Source: Eunapius fragilis (lineage: Eukaryota; Porifera; Demospongiae; Spongillida; Spongillidae). From it: DNA of 64,000 nt. The notes below the pieces were generated by a model, which saw nothing but the letters and a program-made list of their open reading frames with translations, made no database searches and was not told where the DNA came from. Below, piece after piece: positions 3,011 through 11,134 of the stretch. Every line of letters begins with the position of its first letter. Position 1 is the stretch's first letter. Location of the stretch: NCBI GenBank assembly GCA_963681505.1, contig OY811985.1:1660713-1724712 (forward strand), written 5' to 3'. The position numbers were made by a program, and so were the translations under genes.

Positions 3011-4175
3011 TTAGATATATATGCCAAGGGTAACATACTGTACTGATTCATTTTGTAGCTGCTAATACTTTATACGCTGCTAATTAATGTATAACTTACA
3101 CAGTGTACATATGCAAGTAAAACATTTAGACAATTAGTGCAAACATCTCACTATAACGATGCTGCATGGAAAACCAGTTAGAATTCTAAATAAATAAATC
3201 AAAGCCAACAATACCTTTTAACCAACAGCAAGTTAATGCTATGGTGGACCTACTTCTTGGGCTATGGTGGACCTACATCTTGGCCTATGGTGGACCTACT
3301 TCTTGGGCTATGGTGGACCTACTTCTTGGGCTATGGTGGACCTACTTCTTGGACTATGGTGGACCTACTTCTTGGGCTATGGTGGACCTACTTCTTGGGC
3401 TATGGTGAACCTACTTCTTGGGCTATGGTGGACCTACTTCTTGGGCTATGGTGGACCTACATCTTGGGCTATGGTGGACCTACTTCTTGGGCCATGGTGG
3501 GCCTACTTCTTGGGCTATGGTGGACCTACTTCTTGGGCTATGGTGGACCTACTTCTTGGGCTATGGTGGACCTACTTCTTGAGCTATGGTGGACCTACTT
3601 CTTGGGCTATGGTGGACCTACTTCTTGGGCTATGGTGGACCTACTTCTTGGGCTATGGTGGACCTACTTCTTGGGCCATGGTGGGCCTACTTCTTGGGCT
3701 ATGGTGGACCTACTTCTTGGGCTATGGTGGACCTACTTCTTGGGCTATGGTGGACCTACTTCTTGTAACCATTTTGGGCAACAATAAACAAATTAGCAAC
3801 AATGACAAATATATTGGAACCTATTGGAGCAATAAATAACTATTCTATGGCGATAACATCCAGAAGGTACAAAATACTTTAAAAGGAGTATTCATGACTA
3901 GACATGAACCAGTACCCAACCTGTGCATTTTCAATGTAACGTGGAGTAGGTAGTGATGCAGCCCCTTCATTGGTCAGCACTACACCATGGGCTTCTATAT
4001 CCTGCATCTGTTGCTATACAGAACATAATGTTTGGAGCTTACAATACACAACTAGAGCCAGTTGACTTACTTGGTTGACATAGTCATTGGTAGGAAGCAT
4101 GCCACAAGCCTCGCATGCTAACGTATTGGCACAACCCTTGCCAGCAGGTGGCAGTTGAATGGTGCTGGTGTTTTC
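3011..4175 (-). CDS. MET-like: Exons 15-17: receptor tail with three tyrosine motifs
   Basis: Three small phase-0 exons complete the reading frame. Exon 15 (4175-4071) ends in PTNDYVNQ, exon 16 (4007-3921) contains TPRYIENAQ, and exon 17 (3058-3011) contains [10 protein letters not shown] and then TAA. Exon 15 uses the acceptor TTACACAG at 4176, the only nearby AG that keeps frame with the phase-0 donor ATG|GTAAAT. Y-V-N-Q fits the pYxN consensus for a GRB2-type SH2 domain; MET also carries a YVNV GRB2 site in its tail. The last intron (3920-3059) contains the 23-bp minisatellite. Splice sites and frame are seen; SH2 docking is inferred. This is the least certain part of the gene model. Confidence 0.68.
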
Positions 4176-10100: not shown

Positions 10101-11134
10101 TTGCACCCGCTGCTGCACTCAAAGGTCGAGTCGTTAGCACTCCGCCATGGAAGGGCCCCAGAGGAGCAGGTGTGTGTGGAAGAGGGCGTGGAGGCGTTGT
10201 CCATCCTCGCGTCAATCTGGGACAGTGGGTATGCGCATACACCGCTGCGGTACGTACCTCCAACGTTGCCACCCGTTGGGGGTGTGACGACTATTCCAAC
10301 CAGAAGGGTGGCTTCAGAGGACGCGGGTCCATTTATCGGGTAGACAACAAGAGACGCACCGGCTAGCATAGCGTAACCGTTAGCCTGCTCGGCAAGACCC
10401 AAACAATCCAGTTCTATTTCGGACATAGCCGCTACCAGTGTCTCGTTGATGTTGTCGCACACCCTCAGTACCCTGATCCCTGGCGACGTCCCGGGGGAAG
10501 CGTTCACATCGAGTACCACAAAGTACGCATAGGAGCCCGCCACGAACCCTCCAAACCATTTGCGGGTGAATGTGGTTGCAGTCACACGAAATAGATCACC
10601 CGACGCCCTGCACAAGTTTAGAGCCGCGCCGTCAAGTCCGTACTGACCGATAAGAATCACAGTACCGTTGCTACTGCCTACGTAGAAGCTGTTCTCTCTT
10701 TCTCTGACGGTGGCACTCACCAAGGCCACGCTATCGCTGCTGGACAGAACTTTCTCAAATACCTTGCTGGAGCCATTGTTCAAATCGTTTGCATCGCGGA
10801 CGGTACAGCTTCCGTCGCCCGCGCACGTCAAAAGTTTACTGTCGTCCGGTGTCAAAGCCATTCCCAAATGGAGCATTTCTCCAGTCAACCATAAAGCCTC
10901 TTGTATCGTCAGATTGCCGTTCAACCTGTACACCACGCTTCGCCCGCTAACAATTGCGCTTACAAACAGTTGACTGCCATCGTCGTCGCTAATGGCTAAG
11001 TCCGTCAACTGTCCATTGGGTGTAATGCAAAGTAGTTGGGCATCGCATTCCGTCTGCGTCAGGCAAAATATTAATATCCTAGCTAAGCAAACGCGCAGGA
11101 CTAGGAGAGTAGCTGTCCAATTCCAACGTGCCAT
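3011..11134 (-). CDS. MET-like: MET/RON-like receptor tyrosine kinase, 17 predicted coding exons
   Basis: Predicted transmembrane receptor that binds an extracellular ligand through a Sema domain and signals through a cytoplasmic tyrosine kinase. Coding exons (minus, 5' to 3'): 11134-9923, 9856-9728, 8148-7904, 7843-7759, 7589-7347, 7275-7180, 6928-6619, 6263-6174, 5811-5728, 5570-5353, 5248-5178, 5093-4925, 4725-4583, 4528-4363, 4175-4071, 4007-3921, 3058-3011. Each junction has GT and AG, all phases match, and the total is 3,501 nt (1,166 residues plus TAA). Order: signal peptide 1-33, Sema about 34-447, PSI 456-505, IPT repeats about 510-770, membrane segment 716-745, kinase about 795-1060, tail to 1166. 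The start was chosen because it opens on a hydrophobic leader; an upstream in-frame ATG at 11338 would bury the leader. Seen: motifs and splice sites. Known: this domain order defines MET/RON. Inferred: the complete model and orthology. Human MET is about 1,390 residues, so this one is shorter. Confidence 0.88.
3238..3767 (+). repeat. 23-bp minisatellite, about 23 copies
   Basis: The unit CTATGGTGGACCTACTTCTT plus GGG is repeated almost perfectly. Because 23 is not a multiple of 3, each frame cycles through all phases of the unit; none of these phases contains a stop, which gives long artefactual open frames. It lies in the last predicted intron of the MET-like receptor. Confidence 0.97.
4363..5811 (-). 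CDS. MET-like: Exons 9-14: tyrosine kinase domain
   Basis: All catalytic signatures are present: glycine loop [15 protein letters not shown] lysine (residue 828), alpha-C glutamate in MMSEIL (845), catalytic loop HRDLAARN with Asp921, DFG Asp939, activation segment ending KWLAPES, WSFGV, and C-lobe [12 protein letters not shown]. The DLAARN form and the KLPFKW segment mark a tyrosine rather than serine kinase. [10 protein letters not shown] followed by GRRLEKPE is close to the MET/RON C-lobe. The activation loop reads VYVSGYF: the first two MET-type tyrosine positions are kept, but the third (second of the MET Tyr-Tyr pair) is Phe. Exons: 5811-5728, 5570-5353, 5248-5178, 5093-4925, 4725-4583 and 4528-4363, all in consistent phase. 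No inactivating change is visible. Confidence 0.93.
5647..5722. repeat. (AC)n microsatellite in receptor intron 9
   Basis: Imperfect dinucleotide array directly downstream of the exon 9 donor (at 5727), within the intron between exons 9 and 10. Confidence 0.95.
5933..6095 (+). repeat. 33-bp minisatellite, about 5 copies
   Basis: The imperfect unit contains GGTCACAGCAGACCAGGGGT followed by GGGGATCAGGTGA. It lies in receptor intron 8. Its open frame on the plus strand is a repeat artefact. Confidence 0.9.
6174..6928 (-). CDS. MET-like: Exons 7-8: membrane segment and juxtamembrane region
   Basis: Exon 7 (6928-6619) starts with [14 protein letters not shown], the last IPT strand. A Thr/Gln/Pro-rich stalk with two near-identical LPGN(I/V)TQQ units follows. 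The single membrane helix is at residues 716-745 ([18 protein letters not shown]), with basic stop-transfer residues. The exon ends GGAG|GTACAG in phase 1. Exon 8 (6263-6174) encodes the juxtamembrane stretch and ends inside the glycine loop (LGTG). Two tyrosines (755 and 785) lie between membrane and kinase; I see no clear counterpart of the MET CBL-binding DpYR site. Confidence 0.88.
6332..6561. mobile_element. Short inverted-repeat element (MITE) in receptor intron 7
   Basis: The left end CAATAGTGGCTCATACATCA pairs with the reverse complement of the right end, CAGTAGCTGCTCGCACATCA. Pairing continues inward through CACACATTTGCAT and CAGCACAAAA, so the arms are roughly 70 nt with mismatches. 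No coding capacity. The CAGTAG-type end suggests a hAT-like family, but no clean target duplication was seen. Confidence 0.75.
7121..7137. repeat. Poly-G tract
   Basis: Seventeen consecutive G in receptor intron 6, followed by a short mixed stretch. A likely site of polymerase slippage. Confidence 0.95.
7180..8148 (-). CDS. MET-like: Exons 3-6: PSI domain and IPT/TIG repeats
   Basis: Exon 3 (8148-7904) encodes a cysteine-rich PSI module with [17 protein letters not shown] and the CSRRSQC spacing seen in plexins and MET. Exon 4 (7843-7759) begins an IPT fold with [13 protein letters not shown] and ends in NGGTS. Exon 5 (7589-7347) continues with ECEQTF and KCIVPPL, the usual end of an IPT repeat, and then a linker. 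Exon 6 (7275-7180) holds [10 protein letters not shown], a second IPT strand pair. Phases are 0/2, 2/0, 0/0 and 0/0. The exon 3 start is slightly ambiguous: AG also occurs 9 nt downstream, which would remove three residues without changing frame. Two IPT repeats are clear; MET has four, so the stalk is probably shorter here. Confidence 0.88.
8685..9597. mobile_element. Terminal-inverted-repeat element in receptor intron 2
   Basis: The left end CAGGGGCGGC and the right end GCCGCCCCTG begin imperfect inverted repeats of about 140 nt, with matching blocks such as ACTTTTGACATCATTC and GCGGGATG. TA lies on both sides. There is no coding capacity, so it is non-autonomous. Its central part is occupied by a second inverted-repeat element (9048-9378). 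Confidence 0.85.
9048..9378. mobile_element. MITE nested inside the 8685-9597 element
   Basis: Termini CTATAGAGCTCTTTCAT and ATGAAAGAGCTCTATAG are exact reverse complements. Inner matches include CCGCCATATTGGTGCTCG against CGAGCACCAATATGGCGG, and the AAGCCCATA segment. Non-coding. Younger than the element it sits in. Confidence 0.88.
9728..11134 (-). CDS. MET-like: Exons 1-2: signal peptide and Sema domain
   Basis: Exon 1 (11134-9923, 404 codons) opens with [20 protein letters not shown], a hydrophobic leader. It then runs through a beta-propeller-like region with several plexin/MET-type Sema signatures: [17 protein letters not shown] (a GGF..G.Y.YF strand), a following VLRVCDN strand, and [12 protein letters not shown] near the end of the propeller. 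Cysteines and many N-x-S/T sites fit an extracellular protein. Exon 1 ends in phase 0 at AGCT|GTGAGT. Exon 2 (9856-9728, 43 codons) begins FHVVDGSVN and contributes the last propeller blade ([11 protein letters not shown]), ending TCT|GTAAGT. A single exon carrying nearly the whole Sema domain is noteworthy, since most other exons of the gene are under 320 nt. Confidence 0.87.

What the first reader, a model, noticed from the sequence alone, without database searches (positions are those of the whole stretch)
3011..11134. MET/RON-type receptor architecture in what looks like a sponge genome
Reading exons by hand gives 17 coding exons whose 16 junctions all have GT-AG sites and matching phases, and whose total is an exact multiple of three ending in a stop. 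Encoded order is leader, Sema, PSI, IPT, membrane helix and tyrosine kinase, the HGF-receptor family layout, which is best known from bilaterians. If the host is a sponge, the Sema-PSI-IPT-kinase fusion would predate bilaterians, or would be a convergent fusion of a plexin-like ectodomain with a kinase.
Basis: partly seen in the sequence, partly recalled or inferred. Interest (0 to 1): 0.88.

Follow-up and report, generated by a model that had tools for sequence, protein, structure and literature searches.

The report
Sponge plexin–kinase receptor, MET look-alike
A freshwater sponge carries a cell-surface receptor built in the same order as the human cancer receptor MET, but its kinase comes from a sponge family of kinases joined to a sponge plexin, so evolution appears to have made this kind of receptor once more rather than inherited it.

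Summary
The gene is real: minus strand, 11134-3879, 17 exons, 16 GT-AG introns, 1,199 aa, order leader-Sema-PSI-IPT-TM-tyrosine kinase (Sema by fold and homology, below the Pfam cut-off). A paralog 220 kb away keeps 1,055 codons free of stops and indels. The host is Eunapius fragilis chromosome 15, a freshwater demosponge.

It is not a MET ortholog. Its kinase sits in a sponge clade (32 of 81 rows, 100/100), sister to Halichondria receptors without Sema-PSI; MET/RON form another clade. Joining them is rejected (AU p 0.001; 4e-5 without long rows). Its ectodomain is that of Ephydatia plexins (370-800 bits; MET/RON at most 22). Ephydatia plexin-kinases and plexins stay 64-95% identical past the Sema head into the juxtamembrane, then drop to chance level, where kinases and a plexin share a phase-1 intron. 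In Eunapius both kinds interleave in one cluster.

Best explanation: an independent plexin-kinase fusion by exon shuffling, later shortened to a MET-like form. Expression and ligand are untested.

The parts
9923..11134 (-). Exon 1: start codon, leader peptide, most of the Sema beta-propeller (aa 1-404)
   Evidence: homologous Sema ORFs in Ephydatia and in ENA contigs; paralog
9728..9856 (-). Exon 2: last part of Sema (aa 405-447)
   Evidence: GT-AG; paralog 95%
8205..9713 (.). Stretch around intron 2 with an insertion of about 1.4 kb absent from paralog L020; 17-bp inverted repeats at 8707 and 9561
7904..8148 (-). Exon 3: PSI (aa 455-506) and start of IPT (aa 448-529)
   Evidence: Pfam PF01437 6.6e-9
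7759..7843 (-). Exon 4: IPT/TIG
   Evidence: Pfam PF01833 1.3e-7, best stretch aa 516-574
7347..7589 (-). Exon 5: end of first IPT, start of a second IPT
   Evidence: two TIG stretches
7180..7275 (-). Exon 6: second IPT
7046..7102 (-). Exon 7 (57 nt): [19 protein letters not shown], conserved in Ephydatia; missed in my first model
   Evidence: present with AG and GT in L020
6619..6928 (-). Exon 8: membrane helix (about aa 742-765) and plexin-type juxtamembrane; ends in phase 1, the fusion border
   Evidence: Hydropathy and phase; same phase at the matching border of a C12 kinase and a C12 plexin
6174..6263 (-). Exon 9: kinase-side juxtamembrane, start of kinase
   Evidence: kinase aa 815-1089
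5728..5811 (-). Exon 10: glycine-rich loop and VAIK lysine
5353..5570 (-). Exon 11: helix C to hinge ([13 protein letters not shown])
5178..5290 (-). Exon 12: HRDLAARN catalytic loop
   Evidence: start revised from 5275 by homology
4925..5093 (-). Exon 13: DFG, activation loop VYVSGYF, APE
4583..4725 (-). Exon 14: kinase C-lobe
4363..4528 (-). Exon 15: end of kinase, start of tail (SDYLDLS)
4071..4175 (-). Exon 16: tail with DYVNQ
   Evidence: DYVNQ also in Ephydatia P0002, P0004, P0009
3879..4013 (-). Exon 17: tail (PRYIENA) and stop 3881-3879; least certain exon

Best explanation
It is a single-pass receptor tyrosine kinase of freshwater sponges. Origin: in the spongillid lineage, recombination in a phase-1 intron just after the membrane/juxtamembrane exon put the exons of a sponge-type receptor kinase behind the extracellular, membrane and juxtamembrane exons of a plexin, replacing the plexin RasGAP. 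The fused genes multiplied inside the plexin cluster (chromosome 12 in Eunapius) and kept exchanging ectodomains with plexins. A branch lost the middle PSI and IPT repeats, which gave the short Sema-PSI-IPT form, and moved to another chromosome (15 in Eunapius, four copies); the window gene is one of these. Shown: gene structure, domain order, kinase kinship, ectodomain kinship, identity break at the juxtamembrane border, shared phase-1 intron, interleaved cluster. Inferred: the order of events and the lineage in which they happened. Function, inferred: the Sema head binds a semaphorin or another plexin ligand, or a like head; this pairs two receptors, which phosphorylate each other on activation-loop and tail tyrosines (DYVNQ fits a Grb2-type SH2 site, a motif I recall, not tested). 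A plexin-type cue is thus turned into kinase output instead of Ras/Rap GTPase output.
For: Kinase tree of 81 rows: two Eunapius copies plus six Ephydatia Sema-kinases 100/99, sister to 9 Halichondria receptors 97/94, inside a 32-row heteroscleromorph clade 100/100; MET/RON plus 7 of 8 invertebrate MET-like rows (16 rows) 100/98 apart. AU test rejects joining them: p 0.00097, or 0.0024 without P0249; 4.4e-5 with 8 rows dropped. One phmmer query: Halichondria up to 349 bits, invertebrate MET-like at most 237, MET/RON at most 225. Ectodomain against 288 proteins: eight Ephydatia plexins 370-800 bits; outside Ephydatia and the 45 unnamed ENA/lgn Sema ORFs (217-756) the best are 36 (P0286), 33 (nematode plexin) and 22 (RON). 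Ephydatia kinase P0005 against plexin P0012: 81-93 matches per 100 residues over 401-1100, 64 of 94 in the block with the border, 21 of 99 and fewer after it. Phase-1 border in the window gene, a C12 kinase (L038) and a C12 plexin (L039). Sema tree: kinase and plexin heads mixed with 100/100 support. Cluster: 14 plexin and 26 kinase places on C12; 32 of 40 C12 Sema hits lead first to one or the other within 30 kb. L038 holds plexin IPT, membrane and kinase exons in order.
Against: By PDB sequence alone, MET is the nearest solved kinase family (221 bits; AXL 217). The tree samples few RTK families (no INSR, RET, EPH or ROR rows), so the deeper place of the sponge clade is open. Sponges outside Spongillida were seen only through one protein database with capped candidates; a diverged Sema-kinase in them could be missed, and 45 Sema ORFs from ENA/lgn contigs bear no species name. 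With plexin P0012 the Sema head of P0005 has only 42-77 matches per block, so the head alone is less close than the rest. Gene conversion could keep ectodomains alike, so an older fusion with an overwritten ectodomain is not strictly excluded. No single Ephydatia short-form model has both full head and full kinase: P0001, P0002, P0004 lack N-lobe pieces, P0003 lacks a C-lobe piece, P0009 starts at PSI; I take these as annotation gaps, but inactive copies are possible. Sema is below the Pfam cut-off. No expression, ligand or activity data.
Confidence: 0.82

Rival explanations
1. True MET/RON ortholog: the Sema-PSI-IPT-kinase fusion predates sponges and bilaterians and was lost in many lines.
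For: Same domain order and a YVN tail motif; MET is the best PDB kinase family; MET and RON are among the best hits outside sponges.
Against: Kinase trees and AU tests; kinase nearest to sponge receptors with other ectodomains; ectodomain nearest to Ephydatia plexins, with juxtamembrane shared; no furin site RX[KR]R.
Confidence: 0.06
2. Older sponge fusion: the plexin-kinase arose before the heteroscleromorph sponges split and was lost in most; ectodomains look young only because of gene conversion with plexins.
For: The Sema tree shows exchange of heads; the kinase clade spans Amphimedon, Halichondria, Geodia and spongillids.
Against: Of the 22 non-spongillid rows in that kinase clade none lists a PSI domain; 16 list SRCR, sushi, Ig, FN3, ADAM or other extracellular domains and 6 list only the kinase (hits of 403-1283 aa only). 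All sampled Sema-kinases form one clade 100/99. The profile search named no Sema-kinase outside Ephydatia among 71 hits (candidates capped).
Confidence: 0.1
3. Two neighbouring genes, plexin-like and kinase, joined only by my exon reading.
For: No RNA data were available.
Against: Ephydatia gene models from two annotation sources join the same parts; the paralog keeps the chain; phases match at all 16 borders and introns 8 and 9 are only 355 and 362 bp by the coordinates.
Confidence: 0.02

Closest known systems
MET / RON (HGF and MSP receptors), Bilateria
   Same: Order leader-Sema-PSI-IPT-membrane helix-tyrosine kinase; shortened plexin-like ectodomain; a tail tyrosine in YVN context (MET motif recalled)
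   Different: Kinase not in the MET clade; no furin-type site; two TIG stretches against four IPT in MET (PMC6374515); second tyrosine of the activation-loop pair is Phe (alignment); ectodomain close to sponge plexins
Met-LP (Met-like with full plexin ectodomain) of Lophotrochozoa and Echinodermata (PMC6374515, passages read)
   Same: Kinase acquisition by a plexin, with a plexin and a fusion gene side by side; long Ephydatia forms and a chromosome 12 gene have this layout
   Different: Sponge kinase clade and sponge plexin, so a separate event; many copies, and also a short MET-like form
Ephydatia muelleri EMCRGX_G025961, G025977 and Em0021g676a, g710a (unnamed proteins)
   Same: Short form, 53-58% identical over 91-98%
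   Different: Not described beyond 'hypothetical' or a gene number; each model lacks some kinase piece
Heteroscleromorph sponge RTKs (Halichondria, Amphimedon, Geodia rows)
   Same: Same kinase clade; 41-55% identical to the Ephydatia kinase P0009
   Different: No PSI listed; SRCR, sushi, Ig, FN3, ADAM or no listed ectodomain

Membership tests
MET/RON receptor family | Sema-PSI-IPT-TM-kinase order in one gene | tested here: met
   Sema by fold and homology, not by Pfam cut-off
MET/RON receptor family | Kinase belongs to the MET/RON clade | tested here: not met
   sponge clade; AU p 0.001 to 4e-5
MET/RON receptor family | Furin site (RX[KR]R) splitting alpha and beta chains (feature recalled) | tested here: not met
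   No match in 1,199 aa
MET/RON receptor family | Tandem tyrosines in the activation loop | tested here: not met
   VYVSGYF against MYDKEYY of MET in the alignment
MET/RON receptor family | Kringle-protease ligand (HGF or MSP) | tested here: inconclusive
   9 kringle matches in the genome: 8 on C14 within about 11 kb of kinase hits, as in kringle receptors, and 1 under cut-off on C1; only best candidates scored
MET/RON receptor family | Two-tyrosine docking site in the tail (YVHV-YVNV, recalled) | tested here: inconclusive
   One DYVNQ, plus PRYIENA and SDYLDLS
Met-LP | Complete plexin ectodomain plus kinase | tested here: not met
   The window gene lacks the later PSI and earlier IPT repeats; long Ephydatia relatives have them
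Plexin | Cytoplasmic RasGAP (PF08337) | tested here: not met
   Absent from the window protein; all 58 genome matches are on C12
Plexin | Plexin-type Sema-PSI-IPT ectodomain | tested here: met
   shortened relative to full plexins
Heteroscleromorph sponge RTK radiation | Kinase inside the clade | tested here: met
   32-row clade 100/100, 100/99

The most novel reading that the evidence does not exclude
Freshwater sponges run a clustered array of paired receptors: nearly the same plexin heads, repeatedly swapped between a RasGAP output (plexin) and a tyrosine-kinase output, so that one cue can give opposite answers, and the array diversifies by duplication and head exchange as recognition receptors do. 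If so, it would be a paired-receptor system, possibly for contact, self or microbe recognition, built from axon-guidance parts in an animal without neurons.
Probability: 0.17. Interest if true: 0.85.

Novelty: new variant of a known kind. Interest (0 to 1): 0.62.

Why it matters
A 2019 survey placed the origin of MET in Bilateria, with two later Met-LP fusions, and listed plexins and semaphorins but no such receptor for the sponge it examined (PMC6374515, passages). Here a non-bilaterian has the same architecture by what looks like a separate event, with the fusion border still readable and plexin genes still in the same cluster as the long fusions. That makes the repeated making of plexin-kinases a testable pattern, and warns that a MET-like domain order alone does not show orthology.

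Tried and rejected
A 16-exon model was replaced by the 17-exon model after the Ephydatia alignment. Calls that used the older protein, its exons or its kinase (19 and/or 5 residues short): 9, 10, 11, 17, 18, 24, 26, 28, 29, 33, 36, 37, 38, 45, 47, 51, 69, 94. Only the Pfam scan was repeated with the corrected protein.

The best PDB kinase hit, 9p9u 'EGFR' at 328 bits, is two kinase copies in one chain, 163 bits each; rejected.

The Sema-head tree has 15 rows and no bilaterian plexin; the only one in hand was a nematode protein, left out. One row (P0126) has no output domain and was left out of the count of changes. Pairing of Sema, kinase and plexin hits on C12 is by nearness only: I entered 40 C12 Sema hits, 34 kinase hits and 28 plexin hits by hand, leaving out C12 hits that were smaller pieces or later exons; 4 of 40 lead first to another Sema and 4 lie over 30 kb from the next element. 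The 26 kinase places are those matching the exon 11 stretch, whose list is cut short.

Kinase rows for the tree were 79 retrieved proteins chosen by hand plus the two Eunapius copies; choanoflagellate and Src-like proteins with two kinases were cut to their best copy. In the pruned tree eight rows were dropped for long branches: P0275, P0249, P0220, P0242, P0048, P0218, P0226, P0228.

Literature: seven searches for such a sponge receptor showed none in the titles and abstract starts listed (at most 20 of 254, 18, 0, 187, 839, 34 and 11 papers). One search (Ephydatia, plexin, tyrosine kinase) gave zero papers. Passages were read from PMC6374515, PMC8662651, PMC8242945, PMC6792448 and PMC12616128 only. 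The library lacks most subscription journals, so novelty is not proved.
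Full report

Not a chance reading. A copy on the same chromosome (L020, C15:1,438,000-1,447,999) matches gap-free at 91.8-99.0% per exon, except part of the leader and the tail. Over 1,055 codons it has no stop, dN/dS 0.46, and 0.27 in the kinase. Two more copies lie at about 1.48 and 1.76 Mb. Glycine loop, [15 protein letters not shown] and APE are present. Against this, no single Ephydatia short-form model has both a full head and a full kinase; I read these as annotation gaps.

The host. The genome holding the window has 218,937,333 bases in 24 contigs; contig 24 is 28,504 bases. 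The genome note for Eunapius fragilis gives 218.91 Mb, 23 chromosomes and a 28.5 kb mitochondrion; the contig lengths I saw agree with its table, with chromosome 15 at 7.18 Mb (PMC12616128, passages). The host is therefore a freshwater demosponge (Spongillidae).

The kinase. Searching with the Ephydatia kinase region, the best hits outside the Sema-kinases are sponge receptors with other ectodomains (Halichondria, Ephydatia, Amphimedon, Geodia), 45-55% identical in the upper part of the list; named bilaterian MET-like proteins follow lower at about 38-44% (the best 120 of 6,129 are listed). In a tree of 81 kinase domains the window gene, its paralog and six Ephydatia Sema-kinases form one clade (100/99), sister to nine Halichondria receptors (97/94), within a 32-row sponge clade (100/100). 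MET, RON and seven of eight invertebrate MET-like rows form another clade (100/98). Holding the Sema-kinases with MET is rejected: p 0.00097, or 0.0024 without P0249, and 4.4e-5 after dropping eight long rows. By PDB sequence alone MET is nearest, with AXL close. The tree lacks several RTK families, so where the sponge clade attaches is open.

The ectodomain. Scored against the 288 proteins in hand, the window ectodomain gets 370-800 bits from eight Ephydatia plexins. It gets 217-756 from 45 unnamed ENA or lgn Sema ORFs, 36 from a metagenome TIG-kinase (P0286), 33 from a nematode plexin and at most 22 from MET or RON. Ephydatia kinase P0005 and plexin P0012 share 42-77 matches per block in the Sema head, 81-93 per 100 residues over 401-1100, 64 of 94 in the block that holds the border after AEECKR, then 21 of 99 and fewer. 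In Eunapius the exon that ends there has a phase-1 donor in the window gene, in a chromosome 12 kinase (L038) and in a chromosome 12 plexin (L039); the following kinase and plexin exons on chromosome 12 both begin in phase 1. This is the expected trace of exon shuffling through one intron.

The cluster. All 58 plexin-GAP matches in the genome lie on chromosome 12, 1.48-2.09 Mb, with 14 copies of the same exon. Window-like kinases occur four times on chromosome 15 and at 26 places on chromosome 12, 0.04-2.25 Mb, 64-73% identical; I counted these by hand from a truncated list. Of 40 Sema hits entered for chromosome 12, 18 are followed first by such a kinase and 14 by a plexin GAP within 30 kb; 4 by another Sema; 4 lie farther. 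In L038 plexin IPT exons, membrane exon and kinase exons follow each other in order. In Ephydatia too, long plexin-kinases and plexins share one contig, judged by its length, and short forms another. A tree of 15 Sema heads mixes kinase and plexin heads with 100/100 support and needs three changes of output. In these samples kinases have one origin while heads were exchanged.

How it most likely works. The head should bind a plexin-type ligand, pair two receptors and switch on the kinase; the tail offers tyrosines such as DYVNQ. This is inference from anatomy. HGF-like ligands were not seen: the eight kringle matches above cut-off lie near kinase hits on C14, but the search is not exhaustive. 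In another sponge, Halichondria, a plexin and a Sema-domain gene rise six hours after LPS (PMC8242945, passages), which fits a role in microbe response but says nothing of this gene. It works like a MET or Met-LP receptor in layout; it is not filed as a member of the MET family, because kinase clade membership was tested and not met.

Known and new. The 2019 survey of plexins and MET found six plexins in Amphimedon, reported Met and Met-LP only in bilaterian clades, and inferred a bilaterian origin for MET and two separate Met-LP fusions (PMC6374515, passages). The present gene is a further, non-bilaterian fusion of the same kind. Seven literature searches listed no report of it, in an open library that lacks most subscription journals. 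I rate it a new variant of a known kind.

Noticed in passing
window 8205-9713: Intron 2 of the receptor carries about 1.4 kb absent from the paralog L020, with 17-bp inverted ends at 8707 and 9561: probably a DNA-transposon insertion.
   Followed up: partly
window 3238-3765: A 23-bp unit repeated 23 times (96% match) lies just past the stop codon, in the 3' region where a further last exon could be hidden.
   Followed up: no
window 24023-24415 (+) and 52836-53381 (+): Two open frames with ricin-type beta-trefoil lectin similarity (5.5e-8; 1.1e-4, the second under cut-off).
   Followed up: no
window 58231-58761 (+): ZSWIM/MULE-type transposase-like frame (5.5e-37, 1.5e-16), with a PHD-finger-like frame (under cut-off) at 59301-60365.
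   Followed up: no
window 61272-64000 (+): Retrotransposon frames: aspartyl protease, RNase H and integrase zinc-binding domains; runs off the window end.
   Followed up: no
G000 C14:199,000-226,500 and 738,000-741,400: Kringle exons near tyrosine-kinase frames: likely kringle receptor kinases of the ROR/MuSK layout, a layout I recall.
   Followed up: no
P0186, Halichondria panicea: A protein named HGF receptor-like has SRCR, TIG and sushi domains with a kinase of the same sponge clade: another mixed ectodomain.
   Followed up: no
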